Source of the DNA: Scedosporium boydii
Lineage: Eukaryota; Ascomycota; Sordariomycetes; Microascales; Microascaceae
Assembly (NCBI GenBank): GCA_002221725.1
Contig: NJFT01000089.1
Coordinates: 83,560-147,559 of the forward strand
Direction: 5' to 3'
Length of the DNA: 64,000 nucleotides
Part shown: positions 4,453-24,724 of the stretch, piece by piece
Layout of the letters: every line of letters starts with the position of its first letter
How positions within the stretch are numbered: the stretch's first letter is position 1
Notes under the pieces: model-generated
The model's database searches: none
Seen by the model: the letters and a program-made list of their open reading frames with translations, nothing else
What the model was told of the DNA's origin: nothing
Made by a program: the position numbers and the translations under genes

Positions 4453-6315
4453 ATTTCTATATAGGTGCGACGGAGTGAGGATGGGCGAGATTATGGGCGA
4501 GATGTTAAGGCGTATGCCGCCTGCGAAAGGGAGTAGATGGGGTGAGGAAGGATGAAATGTTCGACGATGATTTCGGCACAGACGAGCGAGAAGGAAAAAG
4601 CTTTGAGCACTATCCTTCGCTCCCTATACATTTCCTGGGCCAAATTGACCTCATATCCTTTAAGAATTGGACTACTATAGGGAATTTCTGAGGCAGAGGG
4701 ATCCCCAGGCCGTCAAAAAGATATGCCGGTTGAACGCGTAGTCGTTGTGAGACTATGACCCTATCATCAAGGGGTTCCGAGATGTCGGAGAAAGAATCGA
4801 GGCTTTTGAATTGATCGTTTGGAAAAAAACGGAGGACAGCAGCAAAGTGAGCTTCCAGGTGCAGCGGTCGTTTAGATCCTCCAGGCAGCAGCTGTTCAAG
4901 TGCTTCATCCCTTCCTCTGCTACATCGAGTTCGTGGCCTAAATAGAGTCTAGCTTCTCTTCGAACCACCTCACACATGCCTTTCGTCTTGTTCTTCCAAC
5001 AGGAAGTGGCGAAAGAGACTGAGGTCGAGACCAATCGGGAAAGTCACCGATGGTCGTGCAACGGGGGACGAGGAACCGCTGTCTCAGCTCGGAAGGGGCA
5101 TCATGGAAACGCTTCCAATCAGATAGGGAAGGCAAGCACCCACGACACCATTTCGTTTCTCTCCAGTGCAGTTTGCGCCAGACATGTTGGGCAGGTGAGA
5201 CTTCTGAAGAGGGAAGGCCCATTAGCCCCTGCCTGTGAGATGCTTGTGATCAGGAACAACATTTTGCTCTGTTCTTCGATCATCGCAGAGCTCTTTGCTG
5301 TGTGAAGTAAAGCATGTCTCTCGCTCCGAGGAGAGAGTCAGAATTCGTTTCGACACGGCACGTCAGCGGACATGCGGATGAAAGTCCAGCCGCCGTGAAA
5401 CCATAATGTTAAATGTTTCAAGTCTAGGGTGGAAGAAGGGGTGTGTGACTATGTGTGACTTGTGTGCCACATCATCAGATTTTTTCGAGGGATGAAGAGG
5501 AGAGGGTTTGGGTTGGGGGTTGGGTTTCTTTTATAGATGCCTGGAGGACGTGATGATTACAGCATCTTCCCTGATAATTTCGATAAAGTGAATCAGAAGG
5601 GGGATTTCCACATGCCAAATCACATTCCTCAATGACTCTGTGAATCACCGTTGTGAATATAGGTTAAATGACAACAACAAAGGCAATCAATACTTATCTG
5701 ATGCTCTGCTGATTGCCTAGCGAATCACACAGCTTCCCTGGCAGTCCGCTGCTGATTGCTCCTTGCAAATACAGGCAATTATATCAAGCATGCTCTCATG
5801 TTTGCCATTGTGGCTTTGGTTCTGGTAGATTTTGTTGATATGATTGATCACATCCACCATCGCCATGTATCCTTTTCCGGCTTGATATCGCCAACTGGAT
5901 GGGTTACTGGCCATCTCCATCGAGCTCATGGCGCCAGTTTGGATCCCGGGCTTGTAGGGAGGCTGTAAGTGATGGCACTGGAGGGTAAAGACGGTGCTTA
6001 AAATGGTGGGGGATGATGTTTGTGGTGGCCGATGGTGATTGAGGAGATTCCTGATGGCAATCGAGAGGTATCTTTAAAGTGATGGGTAATGGCAGCGAAG
6101 GGAAGGGAATGATCACGGTTACCACGATGTAGATATCTTGACTGGTTGAGACCTTGTTTTCCTAGCGAAAGCAATCTGGTATCCGGGACCTGCTCTTCGT
6201 CCCTTCCTCAACCAGCTTCCCTACCAAGCAACTGGCTCCTTCCCCGTGTCAATCCCCAAAACTTCCCTCCTCGTACTTTATAATTTAGAATAAAGCAGCG
6301 AGATATCACCGAAGC
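4392..6315. other. intergenic, one coding-like patch
   Basis: No supported gene. Minus-strand frames at 4753-5034 and 4938-5222 look weakly protein-like in two overlapping frames but show no motif; they may be a decayed exon. The rest (5250-6300) is promoter-like or featureless DNA. Confidence 0.4.
4421..4452. repeat. compound microsatellite (TA)8(GA)8
   Basis: Sixteen bases of TA repeat run directly into sixteen bases of GA repeat, just upstream of the start of the minus-strand retropepsin-like remnant. Confidence 0.95.
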
Positions 6316-6545
6316 CAGCTGGCTGACGCAGTCGGTTGGTGACAGCAACCGTAACCTCCGCACGGGGAGAGCTTAGGTTCGATTCCGGTCGCGCACAAGT
6401 TCTTTTCAGGGGGCCATGGGATGCTCGGTCACCAGGGATCTGGTAAAGAAATATCTCGGTTAATGGAGATCCCCATCTGGGACTTGTCCCAGTGGTCCAG
6501 ACGGGAGGCGCGACTGTAATGGCTAGGGCCCCTTTATTTTTTTTA
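6316..6545 (+). mobile_element. candidate tRNA-derived SINE
   Basis: Two internal RNA polymerase III promoter-like boxes lie in the right order and spacing. The A-box-like element TGGCTGACGCAGTCGGTTGG lies at about 6320-6339. The B-box GGTTCGATTCC at 6376-6386 matches the consensus GGTTCGANTCC exactly. About 160 bases of non-tRNA body follow, then a T-rich run at about 6535-6544 that could act as a pol III terminator. The acceptor and T-arm stems do not pair well enough for a real tRNA, which fits a tRNA-related SINE or relic. Target-site duplications were not found by eye. Confidence 0.4.
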
Positions 6546-8183
6546 AATTTCAATTTTCATTGTTTCTTTTTTTTTCTCTTCGTCTTTTGCCGCCGTATAT
6601 CCTAGTCACTCGGAGGTTTGGCAGAGGCCCAAGTCATGATACTGGCCGGGTCGCCTAATGGTTCGTCGATAACTTGGCATGGTCTTCATTTGAGGTCGGG
6701 CCTCGAGGCAGAGGAAGAATACACTTACGTCTGCTGCACGCGTCGAGGGGCAAACCACAAGGAATGGCGCATTTGAACCAGTCTCGAGACGCCTCTGTTA
6801 GGAGACGAATGGATATACTGAGAACGACAAAGGACGTTATATACGTCGCCCGTCGCCGGACAGGATTTCGCCTTAGCAGAACCACTGCCTGGAGTATGTT
6901 CGGACGACGTCCACTGATTGGTCCGCGACCCTGCTGCGTGGACTTGCACTATAACTGCCCGATGGAAGTCCGCGGACTAAAGTGGTATCTCGCGACTGCT
7001 GTTTAGGTAACAGAAATAGTGAACATATAACCACGGTGCCTATGATAGATCTCGTGTCTGGTACAAAATCGCTAGGACCAAGAGAAATCGCCACCATGAT
7101 CGGCCGTTTATAAAAAGGGCCGAGGCCGGTGGAGGGGCAACTGTCTCGGCGTCAATGTACGCAACGGCCTGGAATGTGTAGCTCTCCCCTACTGGGTGGT
7201 CTCCCTCCGCATTTACGAAGCAGAAGCCTAGTTTCTGCGCTCGGAGACCCGCCAGGTGCTTTGCCAGTTTGTAGACATGCCGGGTAACCGACTGCGTCAA
7301 GGCGGTGAGGCGATCCTCATGCGTGTCCGCTCTGTGCAGTGGTTCGAATATATATTATATAGGCGCTATACACGATCAGATCCGAACTGAGGTCTGAAGA
7401 GGACGTGCGTTACATAGAACTGAAAAAGCCTCCTCCCATGCGTGGCTGTACGATAGTGGAGTTAGGAAGATGCTCAAACTTCCGCAACATAGTCTCTGTC
7501 CTCGGATGTCGGCCTGACTGTTATCGGAGTTCTCATAGTGGCAGAATGTGCCAGCCTAAAAACGTGCGGCATACCTAATATGGTGTGCGCCCCGGCATCT
7601 TCGTTCTCTCTTAGGGAGGAGACTCCGAGGGTCGAGTTGGCCAGCTGGCTGTACTGGGCCAAGCGCTCGTGCCTCTCCCGCTCAAATCAAAACACCAAGG
7701 TGAGACTTTGATATGGTAGCAGGAAATTCCGCGCGTGATAACGGGTGATCGTTGGTGACATGTCTCTGAAAGAAAAGGCGAGCTATTAAGGATAGAGGCG
7801 AACCAATCCTCAGGCCTCGGGGGGGATCTGCAAAAGGTTAGACGTCTTCTGAGGGAAGAAAGAGAGATATTACTCCAAAGCACCGCTTGAGAGATGTCTG
7901 GAAGATTGAACAAGCAATGCTCGTACCTGCAAAAGCACACGACAAACAGATCTTCTGAGTCGGAAAAGAGACACGGGTCAGATAAGGCTCAAGCTTCAGG
8001 CCCAAGAGACACTCGGTTCCCAGCTGGATAATGCTGCCACAACTAGGACCATTCAAAGAAGGCAGACGATGGGATCGACACAGGCAATAGCAAAGTCATC
8101 CTATTGCTATTTCCTGGTCAAGTATCTTCATCTTGTTGGTTTGGTGTTCCAGTGATTCTTGTTGTAATATAGATACTTGGGGG
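6546..8183. other. no supported gene; coding-like patches on the minus strand
   Basis: Minus-strand patches at about 7300-7040 (containing GFCFVNAEGDHPVGESYTFQ) and 7690-7570 (containing LAQYSQLANSTLGVSSLRE) have protein-like composition. I cannot join them into an intact gene or assign a family. They may be relics of a gene related to the island to the right. Confidence 0.35.
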
Positions 8184-11100
8184 CTATCTGCCCTCTACTT
8201 TTCCATCCTCGACCACTGGGCCGCGTCGCCTTTGTTTTCTGAGTGTCCTCTCCTCCCAACAGGCATTAACCGATTCGCACACTGACTCGTAATCCTCATC
8301 CAGAACACTCCCTACTATAAACACGCGAACGTTATGCTCCACCGTCACTAGTTTGGAGTAATTTACCCTCGAAGCTGCGGGGAGGCTTTCACCGGCCACA
8401 TGAAATTTAACTCTGACTGTTGGCCTACCCAGCTTCGGTTCCTCGGGGAGAAGACGCGGCTTTTGGCCAGCCATGACGATAATTCCGTGTCGGGCGGGGT
8501 TAACTCCTGCTTTCTTGCAACCTTTACCGCCATACGTGAATATAGGACTAGATGCGTGTTAGTTGATGATCTCGAGAACTGAAACCCCAGGCCCAGTACA
8601 CATGAGCCGACGGTATAGGGCAAGGAGCAGGCACAAGAGTCTGTACATACACACATGTGCAGTGTCCAAAATCGTTTCCAATAACAATGAAACGCCTGAT
8701 TCCCACAAGAATGGTATTCGAAGAAGAGCCACCCAGATCTACATTTTTCTCTGACAAAGTGTCATCGACAAAATTCTTTTCGGAAGGTTCCGGCCATAGA
8801 ACTTTGAAAATCTTTCGCATTCATATTAGCATCCACCGTACATATGCAGGATAAACATGCGGCAAACCTACCGTTCCAGGCTGAAATTTGTGGGAAGCCT
8901 CAACTCGGTACCCTTTGACGACATTACATTAGGTGAGTTCAATAACGGGTCTCGGCTGACTCACTCGTGTCAAGTATCTCGGGATCCTTGTTCGAAGGGC
9001 CGGCGATATGGGTCCGCCACACTCGCATACCCCTCGTGTGTTGCCGTAGCCCCTTCTTCTGGGAAGTCGTCAACATCTTGAGACAATATGCCGAAGTCCA
9101 CTGCTTCTAGAGAATCGTCAACATCGCGAAACAATATGCCCAAGTTATATTCTATACGATACCTTCACCAGCTGACTGGAATGTGGAAGGCTGATCGGAA
9201 TGGATTTCATCAGGCTTGCTTTGCTCGTCGTGAACATCCGACTCTTCGTCTAGTACCGGGCCCCACTTCGTTTCGATAGTACCTAGATTTGTCAGTACAA
9301 GTATAAAATGCTTATTCGTGCTGTCTGATCAATAAACCGACCGAAGTTGTCCTGGCGCTGACGATAGTATCTGGAGTATGTTTTGGACCAGTGCCAGTCG
9401 CCCCATACGCTCCAGATCTGATGTTTCCGACCCGTGCCTTTTCTGAGTCTGTGGCTGGAGTGCTTAGTGTCTTCCACTGATGTTGGAGGGCAGTCTAGTG
9501 CGTTTTCGGCGGGGTTCTCTTGCAGACTATCTTCATTTTCCGAGGATATTTGTTCTGGCAGTTTGTTGGGCTCGGAAAGACGTAGACTCATTACTGTTGC
9601 CCAATCCAACTCAAATATGTTCTCATCTAAAGGTTCTGGAAGGAATGACTCATTATAGCCCTCGAAATCTGGGTCCAAATCCTGGAAGTCGGAAGGGACA
9701 GGCAGGAAAACCCACTCCTCGTCGAGAAGAGTCGACGGACGTTGGCCAGCCCCCGACCCGTCGTCTGACTCGTCGTCTAGGTACGCGACTGACATGAATC
9801 CGAGCTCCTTGATATGGCATGCAACGTGGTGCGACAATTTCCTTCGAAAATCAGCATCGAGATCGTCACGGATTTGGACGGGACGTTTTGCTTTCCGCTT
9901 TGGGAGTTCGTTGAAGGCGTCCTCTTCAACAAGCCATGGTGCGATTAACGCGATTTCACGAGGCACGCAACCGCAAATTGGACAAGTGTATGGCAGCCTA
10001 TCTCGCCGTACCTCGCACCACTCTTTCAGTAGGGTTACGTCGGACTGGGTATCGTACTCGGGGTGCTGCTTCATGACGTGCCTGTCAAAGGCCGCCTCAT
10101 CGTCGAAGTTAAGCACTTCGTGGTTTGTACCGCAACACCAGAATGGAATCCCATGGATAGTTTCTGCCCAACGGGGTGAGTGGACTTGGTCCATATGACG
10201 ACACCAGTCATCGAACCGCGAAAAGAGCTGCGGCGGCTCCAAGCATTGCTCAGATATACAAGCATATAACTTTAGATCATTATCAACGTGCCGTCTGAGG
10301 GCATATAGCAGTCAGTTTCAAGAAACATTGCAGAAAGAAATATGGAGAAGCGAAGGTAGGTTTAATACTCCCATAGTCTCTTATCCATTACAATCTTCTC
10401 TCCAATCGGGTGTGTGCAATATGGGCAAGTTACCACCTTCGCGGGAGGTTCAATCCTGGGTGGTTCGGGGTACCGAATATCTTGAAGCGGAACGGATATA
10501 GTGGAGCGAGCGGTTCCGGCGGGATCAGCATCTCGATATTTCCGCAGTGCGAGCCGCGAATCTGGCATCGTTGGCTCAGAGATGGACGGAGGTACTAGGC
10601 GACTAAGCCTGGGAGAGCCCCGAAATGGTATCACGCATTTGCCCTCGTCCTGTGTAGGTAGGATCAGCCCATCGTTAAGAGGATTCGGAACTGGGGTTGG
10701 CCTCCCTTCGAGTTTAACGGTGCCCGCGTCATGGTTGCGTGGGGTGCTCAGCTTTTCTGCATGACTTCGCAGGTACCGAATCCTGAAATATCTAAAGGAG
10801 ATGGACGCTGCTAATTGCTTGCAAAGCGATAGCGGCGGGCCGGTGTCCTTGCCCTGGTTCCTGGCTGAGGCCATAAACTTGTGCTTAAGACGGAAGCAGA
10901 TGAGATCCTGGAGGTCACCGTCATCCTCCTTATTCATGAAGGCGATAATCCTCTGGGTCAAATTGCTGGACGACGTCTGACGCATCGCCACACCTAGTCG
11001 ATGCAAGCTGTCGAGGGCAGCTTCCAACGCTTGCAACGTTTCCACCAACGGCGATGACACGTTTTCGGAGGACCCCCGGACCATACTCTCGATAAGCGAT

Positions 11101-11499
11101 GCTGGAGACTCGGACCCTGTCTTCTCATTTTCAATCGCCACGGCTATAAAATAGTGTCAGCTCGGAGCGGCAACGTTGGCACCGGGCCTCATTCCCCAAA
11201 CAAAGAGTAGAGACACGAGACTGACTACGGATCAAGTTCCGTTTTGCTATCTCTAACAGCTGCAGGACCAAGGTTCGCAGAGAATCGCTGGTCCTTAGCC
11301 GGGAGTCCAGGGATATCGACTCTTCGGCGAACACGCCGAGATAGGACGCCCATTGCTGGAAGTGTTGGTACAGGACGTCCACGACGGGAAAGCTGGCCAG
11401 AGACCTGTCGCTGAGAAGGTCGTGAAAAGCATCTTCGCACAATCTGCCGAGGTTGTAGATTTCATGGCTATCGGCCATTGTGAATCTTCTATGGTCCAA
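8184..11499 (-). CDS. C2H2-type zinc-finger (acuF-like) protein fused by splicing to a C-terminal DUF6590 domain
   Basis: Minus-strand exons by frame continuity: 11499-11229, 11143-10369, 10294-9342, 9282-9163, 9106 to about 8990, about 8910-8872, 8811-8651 and 8547-8184. Introns are 56-85 nt where defined. The start is either 11499 or the second Met at 11478 (MADSHEIYNLG), which looks like the usual start. The N-terminal helical region (RLCEDAFHDLL) and the Cys/His segment (CPYCTHPIGEK, then LKLYACISEQC, HMDQVHSP, HVMKQHPEY and YTCPICGC) match the fungal family often labelled oxidoreductase acuF-like C2H2. The last exons read as DUF6590: FQPGTIFKVLWPEPSE, RRFIVIGNDFGHCTC, YGGKGCKKAGVNP and RVNYSKLVTVEHNVRVFIVG. 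One junction is unresolved: frame 9106-8970 runs into TGA at 8970-8972 and the next acceptor is near 8910. The gene is therefore a fusion with an unclear small intron, a gene with one premature stop, or two neighbouring genes. Molecular function is unknown; such proteins are common near fungal NLR genes. Confidence 0.65.
9067..9146 (-). repeat. 48-bp direct duplication in the DUF6590 gene linker
   Basis: A 32-base segment starting TCGTCAACATC at 9067 recurs at 9115 with few changes, giving a 48-base (16-codon) period. On the minus strand it encodes FGILSQDVDD and a second copy, GILFRDVDD. The second copy lies inside the intron I predict between 9163 and 9106, so the exon model there is open to question. 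Confidence 0.6.
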
Positions 11500-12074: not shown

Positions 12075-15000
12075 ATGATGCTAGCCGGATCCAAACACTG
12101 GGCTCTGTTCCAGGCCATCTCTCCCCTCTTCACATCCGACATACCCTGGTCCTCAGCAGGGCGGAGCGACGCGGAAACTACTGCCGTCCAGGAAGCCGGG
12201 GCCTTGTTGAGGGCCCATATCAGCGAAATACCCTTCCATGTTCCGCAAGATGCTGCGTTCTCCGATCAGACCCTATCCGATTTTACAACAGCCCTAAAAT
12301 ATTTGCTCTTAACACTTGAAGGTTTAGTCCTGCAGAGCGTTCTCGATGACGCGACTGCTCTTGGGGAGGTAAGCATCTGGAATCGCATGCACAACTTCAG
12401 GTGGTATCAATCGCTCCTAGGCTAAGCTTCACAGAGTCAGGCCGACCCCGTCGAGGAATACCCCAAGCTCTCTGCGCTGAGCTTATTCATCAGAAATGAC
12501 AACTTCTCCACAGTTTACTGTCATCGCTTTCTGTATCTGAATCAGAGGGCTGCCTTGCTCAAGGCCACTCGCTCACGCGCCGAGGGCTCCTTGAAGAATG
12601 TGAAGAAACTGTTTCAAGACTCGGCATCCCTGTCTAAAGATGGGTTCGTTGCTGGGAACCATCTCCCGCCATCATCTCAACCTCAATACAGCCAAATATT
12701 TAGGGACTGCTCAGATACCTTGTTTAACACCCTGGAAAAAACCCTGCGGCCATGTACATCAATGTCCTCTAAACACAAGGCCTTCTTTCACCTGAAGGCT
12801 TCGCCCAATCCTACAATTGGTGGTTCTTCCGCGGAAGTGGATCTATTATTAGCATTATGCCCTCAGGGGAACCCTTGCCAAGAGGTTCGGTTCACCGTTC
12901 CCAACCATACGTAAGTTGTGCAAAGATGCAAAGATTGATGCATGGAATCACGGACAACTCACCAAATACAGCGGTTCGATTCCGGCTGCGATGGCCGAAT
13001 CTCACGAGCGACTTATCGAGGACGTCTGCCAAGTTGCCCGCGAGGCATACGAACGCCAACAAGTTGTGAGAATATACGTCCACGACAACAAACTGCACGA
13101 CACTTCTGATTTCGACGAGGAGCCGAGCAACCCAGAAGCGGAACACACAATATCAATTTCTTCCCTCCTAGACAAACAGGTCTTGCGGGACCGCTTCAAG
13201 TTTCCGCTTGTTCACAAGAGAATTCTAGCCCTAACTCTCGCCCGAAGTCTATTAAACCTTTACGAGGGGCCGTGGATACAGACAGACTGGTCTGCCGAGC
13301 ATGTTCTCTTTGCATATGACACTAATAAGAGCCGCGTTTACGATATCCACCAGCCATATTTGCCTTGTACGCTCTCGTCGGAGCATGAATATCAATCAAC
13401 AGTTAGCGATCCTCTACACAACAACCCATTGATCCTCTCTTTCGGAAGACTGCTCATGGAAATGGATAAAGGGGAACGTATCGCGATCACAAAAACCGTG
13501 AGGTCAAGACCGAGCCTCTACCGAACACTTGTGGCCGAATTGGATGACTGGGGCAAGGAGCTTCTAACTTCATACTACACCCAAGCTGTTGAGGGATGTT
13601 TGAAGTTTCCGAAATGGCTCCAGGCGAACAGGGGCATGAGCCGGGAACTTGCCTACCGCAAAGTCATCTTAGAGAAGATTCTGCATCCCCTGGAGCTTGA
13701 AGTTAGGACGTTTTCAAATCAAGGAGCGGGATCTCGAGATATAGATTTGATTCACAATAACATAGCGCCACCGGACATCGCTAGCCCTTTGGTCCGTACC
13801 TCGAGTATACGGGGTTCAACAGTCGCCGGTTACACCGCCGTCTCAGCAAGAACGGATGCTCCCACGACCACCATGGGCAGAGTGTCCAGGAGCGGGGCAA
13901 TGACCTCCTCTAGAATAAGCCTAGAGCAATCACAAACGAGTCACAGCACTAGGTCCTCCACATTAACTATTAACGCGTCGCGTTGCCCTCCAACTTCACT
14001 GCGCACCCACTCCTCCTCAACCACCAACGCCTCTCTAGCCACGCGCTCCTCCCCAGTTAGTCGTCCCTCTCTGGCCAGCCGCGTTTCTCCAGAATCGACC
14101 CGAAGATTTGAACAACCTGCGCGGCAGCCGAGTCCAAGTGTCAGGTTTTCTTCGACCTCACGGCGCACTCAAATCTCATCTCGGCCCGAAAACGCAAGAG
14201 ACATGCCGAACTTTGTACGCACATGTACCTTCATGTTCAGTGAGAGTGAGATGGAGCTATCTGAAGACAAGTTGAGTTTACCACTGGCCGACCCTACTCC
14301 ACTAGGATCAATAGCATTGACTCGACGCAGGAAAACCCGTGCCAAAGAATTTCTGAAGAGATTTGAGGACTTTCGGTTATGTAACATCCACCGGTGTTCG
14401 AAGACAGCAAGAGTGCGGATTGTTGTCTTAGATACGGGCCTCTCTCACAATGACATCCGAATCCGTGCTCTGAAACGAGTCATAAAGGACGGCTGCCGGA
14501 AGAGGGAGAACATAAACTACAGAGACCCCATCCGGGAGGAGCGAAATTTTGTCGCCGGTAGTCCCGATCACGATGAAGATGGCCATGGAACCCATGTCAT
14601 CGGGTTGCTGCTCACCCTTGCGCCGGAGGCAGACTTGTATGTTGGCAAGATCTCCCGAGGAAAGAAGTGCGAGACCCAGGACCAGGGGATGGCTGCGGTA
14701 AGTATTTTGCATTGGATCCTCATGCGTGGCTATAACTCGGACGAAGTACTAATTGTTCTCTTCTATAAGGCGCTGAGGTGGGCCGTCGATGATGTTAAAG
14801 CGGATATTATATCCATGTCGTTTGGATTCGAAGATGATGCAGGCTGGGATGATGATATGGACAAAGCGATTAAGGAATCCTTTACCGCCGGTAGGATCGC
14901 ATTCGCAGCTGCATCAAACTACGGTGGGAACTCATGTAGAACGTATCCAGCCAAGGCTGAAACGGTTTTCTGCATTCACGCGTCAGACGGCCACGGCAAC

Positions 15001-15363
15001 CCGAGCGGATTAGATCCCACACCGATACGTGGCGACTACAATTTTAGTACGCTTGGAGTGGCCGTGCCGTGCGGCGATACGGGAGGCAGGGAGATCTTCA
15101 AGACGGGCACGTCGTATGCCACGCCGGTCGCTGCAGGCCTTGCTGCTAACATCATAGACCTCGCTGACTGGTTGGCCGAGGCGGGAGAGCTGACCTCCGC
15201 CCAAACGAAGAAGCTGCGCTCATATGAAGGCATGAGGAGCGTGTTTAAGCTTATGGCCCCCAGCCGTCGACAAGACTACGATTATGTCGCGCCTTGGAAC
15301 CTGTGGAACAGGAGAGTAGAGGAAAGAATAATATGGGGCAAAATTAGAGAGAAACTCTCTTAA
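12075..15363 (+). CDS. DUF7580 - subtilisin-like (S8) serine protease, candidate gasdermin-activating protease
   Basis: Exons 12075-12368, 12435-12910, 12972-14697 and 14770-15363 keep frame and give 1029 residues. Residues about 285-500 match the fungal DUF7580 pattern (LALTLARSLLNLYEGPWIQTDW, then NPLILSFGRLLMEMDKGE). A Ser/Thr/Arg-rich linker follows (about 510-650). The S8 domain is at about 735-1015, with D744 (VVLDTG), H795 (DGHGTH), oxyanion N882 (AASNYGG) and S947 (GTSYATPVAAG): all catalytic residues are present. The last intron (14698-14769, 72 nt) is in frame with no stop, so it is easily mistaken for coding sequence. Removing it restores the family sequence MAAALRWAVDDVKADIISM. 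There is no signal peptide, so it is probably cytosolic. It converges with the gasdermin-like gene, 72 bp between stops. In Podospora HET-Q2, a subtilisin-like protease, cleaves the linked gasdermin HET-Q1; the same role is inferred here. An extra 5' exon is possible. Confidence 0.82.
14698..14769 (+). other. in-frame intron inside the subtilase domain
   Basis: Donor GTAAGT at 14698, branch-like ACTAATT at about 14749 and acceptor ATAAG ending at 14769. The length is 72 nt (24 codons) with no stop. Left in, it would insert a 24-residue block (about VSILHWIL to VLFYK) into the conserved strand-helix between the catalytic His and Ser. Splicing gives an uninterrupted subtilase consensus. Confidence 0.8.
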
Positions 15364-15435
15364 ACATTCGATAGATGGGCTGGAAGATACCCCAAAGAAC
15401 ATAGTAATGGATTTATGATACTTGGAATTGAAACA

Positions 15436-16281
15436 TTATCCTAGAACTCTGGTACAGATCCACATAGATTCATCTTGATCGTCGAAAACTGTTCCTTCAA
15501 CTGTTTGCACTAGGTCATCAAAATCGTCTTCGCCAATTTCGTCTCCATCCAGATCTAACTCCGGTATATCATCCTCAGGGAAGGTCCGGGAACCATCTTG
15601 CATAGTGGCACCTTTGGTATGGACTTGCTGTTCGACCCTGCCATTTTTATATCTAATCTTCCTAAACCTCAAAGCAACGACGCAATCGTCACCTCGTGTG
15701 AAGGACATGCCCTGCATGGCGGTTCGAGCGAGCTCGATCTTCGGGCCAAAGACACCAATCCGCCCAATGACGCTAGCAGCGCCGAGGCTCCGGGTGGACG
15801 TATGCCGGGAGTCAGCCGCTACTTCTCGCCCGACCTTGATCCCCGTGATCATATACACGGGCACGCGGAACTTAGTCGTTCGCATGTACGCACGCACTTC
15901 CGACCCTGCCATGCTGGAGCGGATATAATCCTCAGTGGGGTTGAAGTACGTGGTCTCGAGACATCCGAACCTGTACTCTGTATCATCATCCTCCTCGACT
16001 CCTACCTCGGTGCGCGCTCCGAGGCCTAGCGTTAATGCCAAAAACTTGGCCCAAACGCCGAATTTGCCATGAAGGAGATCATTTCGAGTCGCCGTGAAGC
16101 CGTCCATCCTGTGTGGACCGTAGATCTCGTTCGAGGAGATTGGGAGGTGGTCCGCGATGTTTATGGACTGCAGAAATGTCGGGTCCTCGAGGATGTGGCC
16201 GAGATCAATAGGCCCAGCCGGTGGCGGCGGAGTGGTTAAGTCCGGCACGAAGACGAACGTTTTTCTGATTTTGGCCATCAT
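15436..16281 (-). CDS. putative fungal gasdermin-like pore-forming protein
   Basis: A single-exon frame of 281 residues; the start is the first or second Met (16281 or 16278). The N-terminus (MAKIRKTFVFVPDLTTPPPP, then IDLGHILEDPTFLQSIN) matches my recollection of the fungal gasdermin (RCD-1/HET-Q1) start: a hydrophobic strand, Pro-rich turn and an xDLGxILxDP motif. The middle is beta-rich and basic (KFRVPVYMITGIKVGRE, VALRFRKIRYKNGR). The last 45 residues or so form a strongly acidic tail (PEDDIPELDLDGDEIGEDDF). Length is close to that of HET-Q1 (about 280 aa). Fungal gasdermins have only a short inhibitory C-tail, removed by a clustered protease; here a subtilase gene lies 72 bp from its stop codon on the opposite strand. 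The inferred role is membrane permeabilisation and regulated cell death after cleavage upstream of the acidic tail. The family call rests on pattern, length and neighbour, not on alignment. Confidence 0.7.
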   Translation of the reverse strand: MMAKIRKTFVFVPDLTTPPPPAGPIDLGHILEDPTFLQSINIADHLPISSNEIYGPHRMDGFTATRNDLLHGKFGVWAKFLALTLGLGARTEVGVEEDDDTEYRFGCLETTYFNPTEDYIRSSMAGSEVRAYMRTTKFRVPVYMITGIKVGREVAADSRHTSTRSLGAASVIGRIGVFGPKIELARTAMQGMSFTRGDDCVVALRFRKIRYKNGRVEQQVHTKGATMQDGSRTFPEDDIPELDLDGDEIGEDDFDDLVQTVEGTVFDDQDESMWICTRVLG

Positions 16282-17033: not shown

Positions 17034-18508
17034 TTATAGCTTTTGCCCGAAGCGCACGATAAATTTATGCAGTGCCTGCCACCCCAGTGCAATAACGACA
17101 ACTATCGAGAGGAGCGGTATAGCCGTCACGAAATATACCCAAAAGAGCCTTTCTCCCGGGCCATAGCCTTCTGCCATGCTAAAGACACTAGCGACCCACG
17201 AGAGCGGCACAAAGATGAGGGCGATGTAAGTCAAGCGCTGGACATTCGAGGCTTCTCGTAGCTGAACCATTGACGTTGCTACCGGCAGCATTTGCTCGAG
17301 GGAGCGGCTCTGGTGATCAATTTGGCCGCGAATGAACTCTACATCCTTGAGTACCATCTTCCACCGCATTTTTTCACCTTCGCGCTCTAACCAACACTCG
17401 ATGAAGTCGGAAAGTAGGGCCAACTTATGGTTGCTTTGCTTAGTTCGACGGCGCCAGCGCTGTAGGTCGATGATGTCGTCATCGTGGAGTCGATCTTGAA
17501 TACTGCGCAAAGAATACTCGTAGTGCTTGACATAGCGGCTCAAGACGTGAGTGTACATCATCCACTCAGCTATAACTACCCTGACCGGGTAATATCCTAG
17601 CTCCAAGATAGTCGGATATGATCTTGAAAACTGCACAGGGTTGTAGGTGAGGTAATGTAACAGCGCAGGAAGCATTGAGCTATGATCCCACTGTCCGGCA
17701 TTCGTCGAGGAGGTCCGAAACGAGGAGAACGATATGGGTTGCGAGAAGTCTTCGAACCCTCCTTGTAGGACTTTGCTTTGAAATGCTCTGCAGGACCCAG
17801 AGGTAGATGTCTCGATTACACGGCTCACAGACGGGTCTATCAGCATGACACCTGGGTCAAGTTAGCCTAAGCCAGTCGTAAGATCGACCTTGGGTATAGG
17901 AGAGGCATACAAATCCAAGTACAATCTAGTTTCTTGACAAGGATAGAACAGCAACCGCGTGCGAGACCCAGCTGACGTTCTTCAATAGGTGGCAGTCGAC
18001 GCACGTTGCGGTGGATGTTTGATGCAGTTCTTAACGTGTACGGAACGCTCTTGTACAGGCCTGCGCTACCAAGGTCAATGACCTGTTGATAGTGAATGTT
18101 GAGATAGCCCCTTTCCGCGAACAGCGATGGAGGGAAAGCCAAGGATGGCGGAGGTGGCGCCTTTTCAATGCCACTGAAATCGGTGCTTATATGGCTAGCA
18201 AAGAATAAGGGATCTATATCCAGTTGTTCTCCCAGAATTTTCATGATATCCGGCTTGACATCTTCGACGAGCAGAATACGGCCTAGTACCGTGCGGTCTA
18301 TAGAGCGAAGCTTTTCAAGTTCCTCTTCGGCGAACGGTGCTGGCTGCGTTGCGGGCCCTCTATCTCCAGGATAATCGATAGAGAAGATGGTACTTTTGGC
18401 AAGCAAGGGTTTAGATGAGAGGTACTTTGCTAGCCCGGCAAGGCATGGGTTGTTTCGGTATCGTGATGCTACGAAATCGCTGTACGATGGGATCTTCTTG
18501 GCTTCCAT
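17034..18508 (-). CDS. CorA-like two-transmembrane protein without the GMN motif
   Basis: Exons 18508-17911 and 17851-17034 join in phase across a 59-nt intron (donor GTATGC, branch GCTAAC, acceptor CAG) and give 471 residues. The long N-terminal cytosolic part begins MEAKKIPSYSDFVASRY and ends in a charged helical region (RGQIDHQSRSLEQML), the usual stalk of fungal CorA-like proteins. Two membrane segments close the protein: YIALIFVPLSWVASVFSM (about 407-425) and LFWVYFVTAIPLLSIVVVIAL (about 438-458). Canonical CorA transporters have GMN between these helices; here the loop is AEGYGPGER, so Mg2+ transport is doubtful. Such divergent CorA-like proteins are frequent in Pezizomycotina accessory genomes. 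Its place between the gasdermin-like gene and the NLR suggests, but does not show, a membrane-linked role in the same response. Confidence 0.75.
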
Positions 18509-18944
18509 CCCTTAGAAAGCTTGCTGCCAAAAAATATTGGTCGTATGGAGGCTATCACAGAAGTTAACGAGAGGAAACTCCGAATCATAGAAAGCCTTGA
18601 ACAGACATTGAACTCGAGCGATGAGTAGGGTCCAACCCCGACGTCCGAGCCTGGTGGACTTTTTCCACTTTTCCCTGGCTCGTATTCCGGCTTGGAGCTG
18701 GGCGCTTATTTTTTCCACTTGAATTAAGCCACAGCTGGGCTTGGCGCTCCCATTGGCTATCTCTACCTCGTACGTTGTCGCATCATTCAACAGGATTCAG
18801 CTGGAGGCAGGGATGCATATGAGGTCCTTCGTACCCCTCCTCATTTCACCTGCCCTCTACCGTCCCCTCTCCCGTTCCTTGTTCGGGCTTTCTCTAGGAT
18901 AGCTTCTGTGCTTGATGAGGTCACCACCCGCAGCACCATGAAAC
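18509..18944. other. divergent promoter region, CorA-like gene / NLR gene
   Basis: About 435 bases separate the CorA-like ATG (minus) from the NLR ATG (plus), so the two may share a bidirectional promoter. A 92-codon minus-strand frame (18512-18790) ends just before the CorA-like start and may be 5' leader sequence or a chance frame. Confidence 0.5.
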
Positions 18945-21900
18945 ATGGAGTTAGCATCCAGACAAGACTGTGATGTTGATTCCATTTCGGGCGACATAAG
19001 AATACCTTTACAATCGAAAATCGACGACATTCATTACGCAAGTGCACAAGATGGGGATCTCAAGGATTTCTTCATCAAGGCAGTCTGGCCCAGGCTAGTG
19101 TCGGATTACGAAGGCCTTGTAGAAGAAGTGAAAAGGCTGTGCCGCGATGAACTGCAAAGGCGAGGGATTGCGTTCTGGATCTACGGACGAGTGAAGGCGG
19201 CGGAATCAGTTGAGAAGTCTATTGAGCGTCGACAAGCCAAACGCACCAGCAAAGGTGAAGAGGCATACAAATGCGTGGAGGAAATATTCCATGATGTGCA
19301 TGATCTCGCCGGTATCCGGATCGTGCTCAGGTTCGACTCGGACACGGAAACGGTTCGCGATTTTATCCAGGATCGATTTAAAGTCCGGGGTTCGACGGAA
19401 TTCAAGCCTGACCGCGAGGTGTCTCCGGATCAGCGGTGGATTCCACGATTCGGATCGTACGCAACAACAAACTATCACGTCAGACTCGGAAGCCAAGACG
19501 TCGGACCGCCACTTGCCCAGTTCCAGGGCATTTTGTTTGAGATTCAGCTTACTGATATTGGGAACCACCTACACAATGAACTTGCACACCCCTTCTTGTA
19601 TAAAGGAACGCCCTCGGATCTCAGCGCCGGGGATGGTATCGTCCTGGATATAACTCGTGGGCTCGCCCGAACATATGCGCTTTGCCTGATGTACTTCAAA
19701 GACAAGCAGGGAAATAAGCTTGGCAAAAGCGATCTTGAGGATGAGCTAGGGCCGGTGTTGGCGAAGGCGATGGAGCCCGATGAGTCGCACGCTTCGATAC
19801 AAGGCTCAAACTTACCGTCGCCAGAGGCTACGATAGACGCGGCATCTGAATTTATCGAGAATTTACTCCAGAGAGCCGGGAAAGATATGGGGCTCAAGGG
19901 GATTGGAAATTTACTTCCACTCCCACCGCAGGGCTGGGAGTCACTCACTGACCTCAAACTGTGGCTTGTTCGCGGTCTTGAGTGGGTCCTCATTATTCAA
20001 CTCGCCTTCAGAATCTTGAAGCTAATGTTTTGAGGATAGTAAGATCCGGAATGCGGACCAACCCACAGTCAAGCTTCCAACCGTCCGCAGTGCTTCATAC
20101 GATAGTGGGGAGGACGAGCACCTTGCTTTTTGCCAAGCCGGCACCCGGGTGGGTGTACTGGAAGAGATCAAGAACTGGATATACGGACCCGAAAAGGAAA
20201 CGATCTTGTGGATATACGGCACTGCGGGCATTGGAAAATCGACGATTAGCCGAACAGTTGCGCATAGGTGTGACGAAATGGGCGTGCTAGGGGCCAGCTA
20301 TTTCTTCAAGCGAGGGGAAGACGACAGGAATGATCCACGTCGTATCATTCCGACTCTAGCAACACAACTAGCAGTTTCAGTTCCAGGGTTTAGAAAGGCT
20401 CTAAGAGACTCCCTAGACGACCCCCAAAACGAAGGGATCGAGAACAAAGCTATGAGAAAACAGTTTAACGCTCTTCTATTGAACCCAACTGGCCGGGTTG
20501 TCGAAACCACACTAACTAATGATGCATCGTCGCGAACGCGCCCCGTTGTTATTGTTATCGACGCTCTAGATGAGTGCGACTCCGAAATCCATGAGACCCT
20601 TCTATTGTCGCTACACAGATTAGGCTCCATTGAAAATATCCGATTCCGCGTTGTGCTTACTAGCAGAGAAACTCACCAAGTCGAGGTCGTTGTACGAAAA
20701 CTCGCTACACAACAAGCATGTCGCACTCTCCCCCTGCATCAAAAGTTCCAGGAGCAAACGCAGGTTGATGTCTCCAAGTTTTTCGAGGCACAATTCAAGC
20801 GTATTGCAAAGGACAACTTCCTGGATGGATGGCCCAGCCCCAGCGAGCTCAAACGCGTAAACGAGCTCGCAAGCACTCCTTCGCCACTCTTTATCTACGC
20901 AGCGACGCTTTGCCGCTACCTCGATGACGGGACTGGGCGACAGCGTCCCAAAACTCGATTGGAGCTTTGGCTCAAACAGCAGGATCGCAGGGCTTCACAA
21001 GCTTCACAACTTCATCAGATTTATCTCCCAATATTGGACTACATTTTCTTTGGTAGACGCAAGGCCAGTGACAAACCAGAGCCGCTTGACGAGAGAGAAC
21101 AACTAGAGCTGCGAAAAGTACTCGGCGCCCTTGTCTTCCTTGCTACTCCGCTCCCTTCTCGAGCTATTGGGGATCTACTAGGTCTTGAGCAAGGGGATAT
21201 TGAGAATTACTATCTCCGCAATCTCCACGCAGTCGTATACGTTCCAAAAGATCCGACAAGACCTGTACGCCTTTTCCACCAGTCATTTAGAGATTTCCTT
21301 GTTGGTTACAACGGAGAACACCAAGAGTACTTTCAGGTCGATAAAATCAAGGCCCATAGGTGGCTTGCACGAGGGTGTTTAAGTGTCATGCGTAGCCTAC
21401 TGAAACGAGACATTTGCAATACCCAAGATCCTGGCATTCTGAGGCAGGAAATAACAGACGAGGCCATCAATAAGCATATACCGCCGCACCTCCGATATTC
21501 CTGCCTTTTCTGGCTCCACCATCAGCTGGTTCTGGACGTGGAAGCTGTGCAAGAGTTCATCTGCACGCATCTTTTGCACTGGATGGAATGCATGTCCATT
21601 CTAGGTCAGTACGGGGACTGTGTAAGGCTGCTTAGACGTTTGCTCGCACTTTGCCAGGTAGGTCGACAACCGGTATAATAACCCTGGCTCCATTCCCTGC
21701 GCAGCTTTCATTCCTAATATCAAATTGTTTCAGTCAACCCCATCCCTTGGCGTAAATCATGATTTCTGCCAGCTACTAGAGGATGCGGACCATTTTGCCA
21801 CGATCCATGCAACAATAATGCAGCGTGCGCCGCTGCAAATATATGCCTCAGCACTCGCGTTCACCCATAAGTCGAGTCCGGTGAAAATGCTTTTTTGGGG

Positions 21901-24724
21901 ACAGAGATGGCCATTTCTCAAAATCGCCGAGGGCATCCAGCAGTCTTCCTGTCGCACGCTGGAAGGCCATACTCGATCGATTACATGTCTCGCCTTTGCA
22001 CCCAACGGGAAGACAGTCGCGTCTGCGTCGGCTGACTGCTCAATACGCCTCTGGGATACAGATCTGGGCTTGTGCAGAATGTCCCTCGACACAGACTCCA
22101 CTCCAACAGACCTTGTTTTTTCCTCTGACGGTACAACGCTCATGTGTGTTGCCGGACACTGCGTGTTGAGTTGGGATATTGTAACCGGCACGCTCCAGGA
22201 TAATGACCTTCCCGATCTTCCGGAAGAAGGGCATCAATCCTTCTCACCCGACGGCCGGATACTGGCCGTTGTTACACCGTGCACGTGGCCTGTGGAAATC
22301 GGCCTTCGATTTCTTGACCCCTTCGATGATATTCATATTTTGGACGTCGCTAAACGTACTCTCAAAACCACCGTAACCACTAGCAAAGTGGATCTATTAG
22401 CATTTTCTCCAGACGGCACTCGGTTAGCATGCAGCTCGATTGACGGATCAATATCTCTCTGGAACATATCAGCTGAGGCCACTCAAAAATGGTGTTTGAG
22501 GCCTTTACGCTCCCCTTACAGCATTGAAGGAATTGCTATTTCCTCCAACAAGGTCATCTTGTCCTCGAATTATATGCACGCCATTCGAATCCTAGACTCT
22601 GTTAGCGGCAAAGTTGATCGGATGATTCACCTCCCTGGAATATTTCCAACAAGCATGATATTTTCATCGCACGATGAAACCATAGCAGGAGCCTGCGAGG
22701 ACGGGAAAATACGCATCTGGGATAGTGCAAGGCCCGAGAATGGGCTTGTGCTTGGAAGCGCACACAGAGTAGCCCGGATGGCTTGCGCCCCCAATGGACG
22801 AATGATTGCATCGGCTTCAGGTGACCACGCAATACGACTTTGGACTGTTCCAGCCGGCTGGAGAGATATTAAACAGCCCTCTTATCGACCCAATGATCGT
22901 CATGCTAGGTATATCGCCCTTTCACGAGACCATGCAACAATTGCGTTAAGCTTGGGGACCACTATTCAACTATGGGATGCCGAGACAGGCCTTGAGCGGC
23001 TCCGTCTGGTAGCAGATCATCGGAAACCAGTGGACTCCGTTGCTTTCTCCCCGGAAGGTAGAGATGTCGCCTCATCTTCATCAGGCGTTGTCTGCCTCTG
23101 GGATACGAGAACGGGTGAACAGAAGCAAGCCGTGACCTCTCCTAGCGGGAATACGAGTCGCACAGGCCCAGCATTTGACGCTGATTGGACTGTCTGCGAC
23201 GTTGCCTTTTCACCTAATGGTCAAGTTATCGCTTGCGCATCTGAGAGGGGACTACGACTCTGGGACGCCAAGACAGGCATCTTTCAGTCCACGCATAAAT
23301 TCTCCAACTTTAAATACTCGAGCGGGACTCACATTGTATCACGGGATGGGGGACTTGTGATAACATGGAGCGAATATGAGTCGTTCTTCTGGGATACAGG
23401 AAATGAAATAGTGAACGGCCATAATAATCTCAGGACGTCGGAATCTAGAAAGATCGCTATCTCTCCCGACGGCACCTGGTTGGTAATTCCAATCGGGGAA
23501 TTCATTCTCCTTACGGATTCCGCTACGAGAACTCGCCGTTCCTGGATCTGGAGGGGCTACCCATTCCTGCAAGTGTTACAATTCTCATCAGACAGCATGA
23601 CACTCGCCACGACAGACAAGAATACGATTCACCTATGGAGCGCTGTTACTGGAACCCACCTTCGTACGCTACAAGGCCATGAATTTTGGGTCAACGCCGT
23701 TACCTTCTCTCCTGATAGGAAGAAATTGGCATCAGCTTCGTATGACTTGACTGTCCGACTCTGGGACCGCGAGGCAGGAAATCTGCTATATACATTTCAT
23801 GATACGGGGAGTTTGATCCACTTGCTTGCATTCTCGCCCGATAGCAGGACACTTACCTGCTGCTCTCACAAATCCATTTGTATTTGGGACTGTGATAACG
23901 GTAGCGTGCTATTGGCACATAAGCTCGATGATGGTGAGACGGATAACGCTGTCACCACAATATCACCAAGAGGCGGGAAGGTTGCCTTGGCTTCAAGCAA
24001 CGGAAGGCAGTGGGTGGTCAACATATGGGAGACATCAGTCAATCTCCGCCATCGGCCCACTGTGGTTGAAAGCGACAAAATCCACGGACTGGTTTTCTCG
24101 GCCGATGAAACCACACTGGGAGTATCTTTGTCAAATTGTACGCAGCTCTGGGATGTGGCGACTGGCCAAATTAGGAACAGCATTCCTGTCGCCGGATACC
24201 ACCGGCGAATAGCACTTTCACCTGATGGCAAAGTGGCCGCTCTAATAGGTCATTTTTCGTTTAAGCTTGAGCTCTGGTACACTGGGGCGAACCAGCTCAA
24301 GCTAATGGGGCAATTTGGGTTCAGACAAGGATACGTCGCTGAATGCTCATTTTCGCCAGTGGGGACGACGCTTGTCATGAAAGGGCCAAGTGTTTATGAC
24401 TTCTTAATCTATACAATCGGAGACTTCGATATCGAGAAGCAAATGCCCAGCCGGAGTAGGCTTCAACTTCCACGCCACCAGCGTCAGTATTTCCAGAATT
24501 CAGTGCCAAATAGCGATATCGAGGTCTCCAATCCCTTCTGCGGCCAAAGCGACCTGAAGAACAAGCTCATGGCCAGCGGGGAATGGGTGTTCCGCCAGGG
24601 AAAGCGTGTGTTTTGGCTCCCCAAGGATTACAGGGTTGAGTGTAAGGCTATGGACGATCATACTGTTGCCTTAGTAGGTCCGGACGGAGATTTAACAACC
24701 TTAAGATTCGACTTCAGGCAGTAG
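18945..24724 (+). CDS. NOD-like receptor: RelA/SpoT-like N-terminus - NACHT - WD40
   Basis: Exons 18945-19981, 20040-21657 and 21734-24724 keep frame and give 1881 residues. Residues about 40-230 are RelA/SpoT-like: FWIYGRVKAAESVEKS (conserved R, K, S, K), HDLAGIRIVL, FEIQLTDIGNHLHNE and HPFLYK, so key synthetase residues look kept. A NACHT module follows with Walker A GTAGIGKST (about 406) and Walker B VIVIDALDECD (about 517). The C-terminal half (about 955-1870) is a long WD40 array (GHTRSITCLAFAPNGKTVAS, GHEFWVNAVTFSPDRKKLAS). Its repeats differ strongly from each other, unlike the near-identical repeats of HET-E-type NWD genes. Intron 2 (GTAGGT to CAG, 76 nt) is strong. Intron 1 (19982-20039, GTGGGT to TAG, branch CTAAT, 58 nt) is chosen because it alone joins the frames into LPTVRSASYDSGEDEHL, normal pre-NACHT sequence. 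The inferred role is ligand sensing by WD40, NACHT oligomerisation and activation of a nucleotidyltransferase effector. Confidence 0.88.

What the first reader, a model, noticed from the sequence alone, without database searches (positions are those of the whole stretch)
12075..16281. Tail-to-tail DUF7580-subtilase and gasdermin-like gene pair: a likely protease-activated cell-death module
Seen: a 1029-aa protein with an intact subtilisin triad (D744, H795, S947, oxyanion N882) ends 72 bp from the stop of a convergent 281-aa single-exon gene. That gene has a Pro-flanked start, a DLGHILEDP motif, a basic beta-rich core and an acidic C-tail of about 45 residues. Known: fungal gasdermins (RCD-1, HET-Q1) are about this long, are switched on when a short C-tail is cut off, and are usually encoded next to a protease gene; in Podospora the linked HET-Q2 is a subtilisin-like protease. 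Inference: this pair is a HET-Q-type module in which the N-terminal DUF7580 region is a sensing or regulatory part, and cleavage falls between the core and the acidic tail (near residues 225-245).
Basis: partly seen in the sequence, partly recalled or inferred. Interest (0 to 1): 0.88.

Follow-up and report, generated by a model that had tools for sequence, protein, structure and literature searches.

The report
Fungal gasdermin, its protease, and partner
This stretch of a fungal genome carries a likely cell-suicide switch, a pore-forming gasdermin next to the protease that probably cuts it on, and the protease has a kinase-like regulatory part and a recurring zinc-finger partner gene that may be the upstream sensor.

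Summary
The 281-aa gene is a fungal gasdermin: its family profile matches solved RCD-1 (1e-19) and HET-Q1 (3e-9). The convergent 1029-aa gene is DUF7580 plus an intact subtilase. The only other gasdermin detected in this genome is also tail-to-tail with a DUF7580-subtilase. So the pair is a HET-Q1/HET-Q2-like module, a kind known in print.

DUF7580 looks like a pseudokinase: profile and fold searches return kinases, MLKL and IRAK4 first by sequence. A divergently transcribed zinc-finger gene upstream belongs with it: 13 of 14 zinc-finger-family loci found in this genome sit head-to-head with a DUF7580-type gene. In 11 of those 13 pairs no subtilase was found; 8 of the 11 begin with a conserved hydrophobic MSG[FIL]E[IV]AG segment that both protease-fused ones lack.

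My reading: a zinc-finger/pseudokinase chassis whose executioner is swappable, here protease plus gasdermin. Cleavage, pore formation and partner function are inferred, not shown.

The parts
15436..16281 (-). Fungal gasdermin (RCD-1/HET-Q1 family), 281 aa, single exon
15439..15606 (-). Acidic C-terminal tail of the gasdermin, residues 226-281 (6.3 kDa), proposed inhibitory piece
   Evidence: pI 4.05, net charge -17; PEL.L and DDF motifs kept in close relatives; inhibition is inference
15580..15582 (-). Candidate cleavage neighbourhood: codon of F234, at a position that is often hydrophobic (F/L/V) in close relatives
   Evidence: Read by eye from alignment A1 and residue list; compare HET-Q1 F238 (PMC12881547). 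Inference only
12075..15363 (+). DUF7580-subtilase gene, 1029 aa, exons 12075-12368, 12435-12910, 12972-14697, 14770-15363
   Evidence: Spliced translation, one stop; relatives P0018-P0020 with DUF7580 and S8
12687..13710 (+). DUF7580 domain, kinase-like (probable pseudokinase), interrupted by intron 2
   Evidence: Pfam 8.5e-45 and genome search; family profile ranks MLKL/IRAK4 first (E about 0.04); fold of a paralogue matches kinases
13819..14301 (+). Ser/Thr/Arg/Pro-rich linker between DUF7580 and S8 (residues 540-700)
   Evidence: Composition count
14413..15207 (+). Peptidase S8 domain; D744 at 14431-14433, H795 at 14584-14586, S947 at 15112-15114
   Evidence: Pfam 3.5e-17; triad positions
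8187..11478 (-). Third gene: divergent zinc-finger-family protein (exons 11478-11229, 11143-10369, 10294 to about 9334, further 3' pieces at 9328-8969 and 8315-8187; 3' end unresolved)
   Evidence: Spliced model (its last residues are probably intron read-through); tblastn of Scedosporium SAPIO_CDS4926, 86-92% over the main exons; family profile

Best explanation
The locus is a self-directed cell-death module of three genes. The gasdermin is held inactive by its acidic tail. The DUF7580-subtilase is a receptor-protease: its kinase-like (pseudokinase) part holds the S8 domain in check, and on a signal, probably delivered by the divergently encoded zinc-finger partner, the S8 domain cuts the gasdermin near residues 226-240 (candidate after F234), frees a piece of about 5-6 kDa, and the basic core oligomerises into membrane pores that kill the hyphal compartment. 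Shown here: gene structures by sequence, gasdermin family and fold, intact S8 residues, kinase-like DUF7580 family, recurrent zinc-finger/DUF7580 pairing. Inferred: cleavage, inhibition by the tail, pore formation, signal flow from the zinc-finger protein, and the biological trigger.
For: Gasdermin identity. Protease with intact residues. Same tail-to-tail pair at the second, 32%-identical gasdermin. Kinase-like DUF7580. Zinc-finger partner: 13 of 14 zinc-finger loci head-to-head with a DUF7580-type gene. Literature for the kind: PMC10197012 section 15 and PMC12881547 section 20.
Against: No cleavage, killing or interaction data. The HET-Q1 match ends near profile position 226, so the cleavage region itself is not aligned to HET-Q1. 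Gasdermin and DUF7580 models have low overall confidence (pLDDT 54 and 56), and Foldseek gave no DUF7580 match at E <= 0.001. The DUF7580-to-kinase profile match is individually weak (E 0.04). The zinc-finger protein could serve DUF7580 for another purpose, such as transcription, and not as a sensor. 4 of 17 DUF7580-type loci and 1 of 14 zinc-finger loci are unpaired. RCD-1 itself works without cleavage. The protease of the Fusarium loci was not recovered by my capped search.
Confidence: 0.75

Rival explanations
1. It is an ordinary two-gene fGSDM/HET-Q2-like pair and the zinc-finger gene is an unrelated neighbour that merely shares a promoter region.
For: Two-gene fGSDM-S8 clusters are the described norm. 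The zinc-finger gene's function is unknown and none of its three window pieces has a Pfam match up to E 1.
Against: 13 of 14 zinc-finger-family loci in the genome pair with a DUF7580-type gene, 11 of these without any detected gasdermin or S8; about 0.06 such pairs within 5 kb would be expected by chance (my arithmetic from 14 and 17 loci in 42.9 Mb). Tags and contig lengths point to linkage in S. apiospermum and F. proliferatum.
Confidence: 0.2
2. The gasdermin is activated RCD-1-style, by meeting a divergent allele, and the protease does something else.
For: The closest solved relatives by sequence are RCD-1 proteins, which are not cleaved.
Against: RCD-1 proteins are 244-257 aa, whereas this one has a 56-residue acidic tail; both genomic copies are linked to an S8 gene, and the window's protease has intact catalytic residues.
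Confidence: 0.1
3. A decayed or non-expressed module: the end of the gasdermin gene is out of register with relatives, and the 3' part of the zinc-finger gene is disrupted.
For: The C-terminal residues differ from those of the close relatives; about 650 bp interrupts the similarity to SAPIO_CDS4926 near 8969-8315.
Against: The rest of the gasdermin is 93% identical to a relative without internal stops; the protease triad is intact; only the last residues of the gasdermin are affected.
Confidence: 0.07

Closest known systems
HET-Q1/HET-Q2 of Podospora anserina and fGSDM-Q2L two-gene clusters
   Same: Gasdermin with a short tail beside a subtilisin-like (S8) protease gene; significant profile match to the HET-Q1 pore chain
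   Different: het-Q1 and het-Q2 are idiomorphs of one locus, here both genes sit together; this protease carries DUF7580, and there is a zinc-finger third gene
RCD-1-1/RCD-1-2 of Neurospora crassa
   Same: Closest solved structures by sequence and fold
   Different: RCD-1 is shorter and is activated by co-existence of two allelic variants, without cleavage
MLKL/RIPK-type necroptosis proteins and fungal HeLo/HELL-kinase proteins
   Same: DUF7580 family profile ranks the MLKL pseudokinase first, weakly; the C47 paralogue is HeLo plus DUF7580
   Different: In the window the presumed executioner is a C-terminal protease acting on a separate gasdermin, not an N-terminal helical bundle

Membership tests
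Fungal gasdermins (RCD-1/HET-Q1) | Sequence homology to characterised members | tested here: met
   Profile E 1.3e-19 (RCD-1-2), 2.7e-9 (HET-Q1); single sequence 3.7e-7
Fungal gasdermins (RCD-1/HET-Q1) | Gasdermin pore-forming fold | tested here: met
Fungal gasdermins (RCD-1/HET-Q1) | Short inhibitory C-terminal tail removed by a protease | tested here: inconclusive
   A 6.3-kDa acidic tail is present; inhibition and removal cannot be tested here
Fungal gasdermins (RCD-1/HET-Q1) | Membrane pore formation and cell death | not testable with these tools
   -
HET-Q2-like (Q2L) S8 proteases | S8 domain with intact catalytic residues, clustered with an fGSDM gene | tested here: met
   second copy
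HET-Q2-like (Q2L) S8 proteases | Cleaves the linked gasdermin | not testable with these tools
   -
Kinase-like/pseudokinase superfamily (for DUF7580) | Kinase fold | tested here: met
Kinase-like/pseudokinase superfamily (for DUF7580) | Loss of catalytic residues (HRD, DFG, VAIK) | tested here: inconclusive
   No HRD or DFG motif seen by eye in the alignment; not scored formally
het-Q-type allorecognition locus | Idiomorphic or allelic incompatibility between strains | not testable with these tools
   No strain population data available

The most novel reading that the evidence does not exclude
Filamentous ascomycetes carry a previously undescribed two-protein signalling chassis, a zinc-finger sensor (sometimes with ankyrin repeats or a kinase domain) encoded head-to-head with a DUF7580 pseudokinase, onto which evolution plugs interchangeable executioners: an N-terminal MLKL-like membrane helix in most copies (necroptosis-like), or a subtilase that switches on a gasdermin (pyroptosis-like). 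In Fusarium the zinc-finger-kinase would act on the pseudokinase as RIPK3 acts on MLKL.
Probability: 0.4. Interest if true: 0.88.

Novelty: new variant of a known kind. Interest (0 to 1): 0.72.

Why it matters
A 2025 review calls the stimuli that activate the putative sensors of these fungal death pathways a major open question and asks for work on what regulates the gasdermin-activating proteases (PMC12881547 section 20). This locus gives a concrete regulator to test, a pseudokinase with a zinc-finger partner, and suggests that pyroptosis-like and necroptosis-like death in fungi share one upstream receptor type. It also gives DUF7580, a family of unknown function, a likely fold and a genomic partner.

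Tried and rejected
Rejected: gasdermin as a chance resemblance. Dropped before the zinc-finger count: C82 (a different 1177-aa protein sharing the C2H2 stretch) and C4 (a short tail similarity). Tried and weak: Pfam evidence that the MSG[FIL]E[IV]AG segment is a HeLo-like domain (best PF17111 E 0.009, below cut-off); the HELL comparison is recalled, and only C47, which is unpaired, has a HeLo hit. Pfam alone does not call DUF7580 at C20 or C258 (no hit) and is just below cut-off at C53 (26.3 of 27 bits); these rest on home-made profiles. Tried: more gasdermins in the genome with two further queries, only the same two found; very divergent ones could be missed. The capped protein searches for the protease and the zinc-finger protein scored only the 7987 and 7993 candidates sharing most words, so their 3 and 4 hits are not a census. 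Literature: in the listings of searches, and the passages I opened, nothing describes DUF7580 (0 papers) or a zinc-finger/DUF7580 pair; Clave et al. 2022, the key paper on Q2L architectures, is not held and may describe kinase-like fusions, as the review hints.

Full report
WHAT IS THERE. The window lies in a 42.9-Mb genome of 442 contigs. Among three relatives of the protease found, the nearest named one is Scedosporium apiospermum (74% identity over 49% of the query), so I take the host to be an ascomycete near Scedosporium (inference). The 281-aa ORF at 15436-16281 (-) and the convergent 1029-aa spliced gene at 12075-15363 (+) are as described, and D744/H795/S947 with N882 is exact. The 815-aa ORF scores 8.5e-45 for DUF7580 and 3.5e-17 for Peptidase_S8.

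THE PAIR RECURS. This genome has one other detectable gasdermin (32% identical, contig C96); two further queries found no third. It too is tail-to-tail with a DUF7580-S8 gene (L003: protease pieces 4583-7279 +, gasdermin 7411-8241 -). Clustering of fungal gasdermins with S8 proteases is known: about 80% are protease-linked, about 63% with S8 (PMC10197012 section 15, read). The gasdermin-protease pair is therefore a new member of a known kind.

A THIRD GENE. Upstream, divergently transcribed, is a protein with a helical-looking N-part, a CPYC knuckle and C2H2-like fingers (675-aa model of the main exons). The C96 locus has the same kind of gene in the same place. A profile from four such genes (window, C96, C26, C37) was tested on the upstream stretches of eight further DUF7580 loci: it hit 5 of 8, all divergent (C36, C3, C85, C33, C15), and missed C101, C43 and C47. 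In reverse, searching the genome with three zinc-finger proteins (window, C33, C3) hit 14 contigs: the three query loci; C15, C37, C36, C26 and C85, already known as pairs; four new members, C20, C53, C258 and C50; and C82 and C4, which I set aside. Of the four new ones, C20, C53 and C258 had a divergent DUF7580-type gene, and C50 did not (its upstream neighbour is a SAD_SRA gene). Leaving out the query loci, that is 8 of 9 accepted members paired (8 of 11 if the two set aside are counted). Two more DUF7580-type loci gave one pair (C49) and one without (C91). Starting from DUF7580 and leaving out the four seeds, 6 of 10 are paired. Final tally: 13 of 14 zinc-finger loci paired; 13 of 17 DUF7580-type loci paired (unpaired: C43, which may be a relic; C91; C101; C47). 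Ten of the 14 zinc-finger loci were first seen by looking beside a DUF7580 gene, so the reverse search is the fairer figure. The zinc-finger call at C258 is weak by profile (E 0.027 and 0.094) and rests on the DLRPWIC/C2H2 pattern and (E 0.0048). None of 24 S8 stretches (17 places) outside the two modules had the zinc-finger domain, though their flanks were only 1.5 kb. By chance about 0.06 pairs within 5 kb would be expected (my arithmetic from 14 and 17 loci in 42.9 Mb).

SWAPPABLE EXECUTIONERS. Of the 13 paired DUF7580 genes, two (C89, the window, and C96) carry S8 and a gasdermin; the genome search for S8 lists no match on the contigs of the other 11. Of those 11, eight begin with MSG[FIL]E[IV]AG and a hydrophobic segment (C26, C37, C36, C3, C33, C15, C20, C53); C85, C258 and C49 have other hydrophobic starts, read by eye. 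The motif was not found at either S8-fused locus nor in 155,659 bases of other loci held, overlaps included. That this segment is a HeLo-like, MLKL-like killing helix is recalled and only weakly supported (PF17111 E 0.009 in C20). The zinc-finger proteins also vary at their C-termini: ankyrin repeats in C33, a kinase-like stretch in C85 (8e-8), and a kinase with its main motifs in place by eye in F. proliferatum and F. fujikuroi (Pkinase 2.9e-16 and 2.8e-18), which could still be gene-prediction fusions.

OTHER SPECIES. S. apiospermum: zinc finger SAPIO_CDS4926 and DUF7580-S8 SAPIO_CDS4927 have consecutive tags. A near relative: gasdermin P0001 (93%) and zinc finger P0022 share a contig length of 47,478. 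F. proliferatum: gasdermin BFJ72_g361 and zinc-finger-kinase BFJ72_g364, contig length 1,926,525 for both. Thelonectria olida has a DUF7580-S8 protein. These adjacencies are read from tags and contig lengths, not from sequence.

MECHANISM AND NOVELTY. Most likely the zinc-finger protein or its ligand releases the pseudokinase-held S8 domain, which trims the gasdermin tail. The gasdermin-S8 half is known. A zinc-finger/DUF7580 chassis was not seen in print in searches of an open-access library that lacks the key 2022 paper; the 2025 review does mention proteases fused to 'predicted kinase-like domains' and HELL domains fused to kinase/pseudokinase domains (section 20 read; passages), so those fusions as such are anticipated. 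In PMC12258605 (passages only) C2H2 fingers appear inside NLRs. PMC13304501 (passages only) mentions zinc fingers only for metacaspases.

Noticed in passing
window 18942-24721 (+): A fungal NLR-like gene beside the module: RelA_SpoT, then NPHP3_N/NACHT, then WD40 repeats in three adjoining ORFs, about 2.7 kb from the gasdermin start; suggests a defence-gene neighbourhood.
   Followed up: partly
window 17034-17846 (-): CorA-like gene between the gasdermin and the NLR-like gene.
   Followed up: no
window 15436-15460: The last residues of the gasdermin ORF are out of register with its close relatives; allele, assembly error or decay not resolved.
   Followed up: partly
window 8315-8969: About 650 bp interrupts the similarity to SAPIO_CDS4926 in the 3' part of the zinc-finger gene; short tail pieces of that gene also occur at contig C4 (L060).
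   Followed up: no
L068 2022-2585 (+): The one zinc-finger family locus without DUF7580 (C50) lies beside a SAD_SRA domain gene, a possible different partner.
   Followed up: no
L055 538-3585 (-): Zinc-finger protein with ankyrin repeats and a weak TPR match, paired with a DUF7580 gene: sensor-like architecture.
   Followed up: partly
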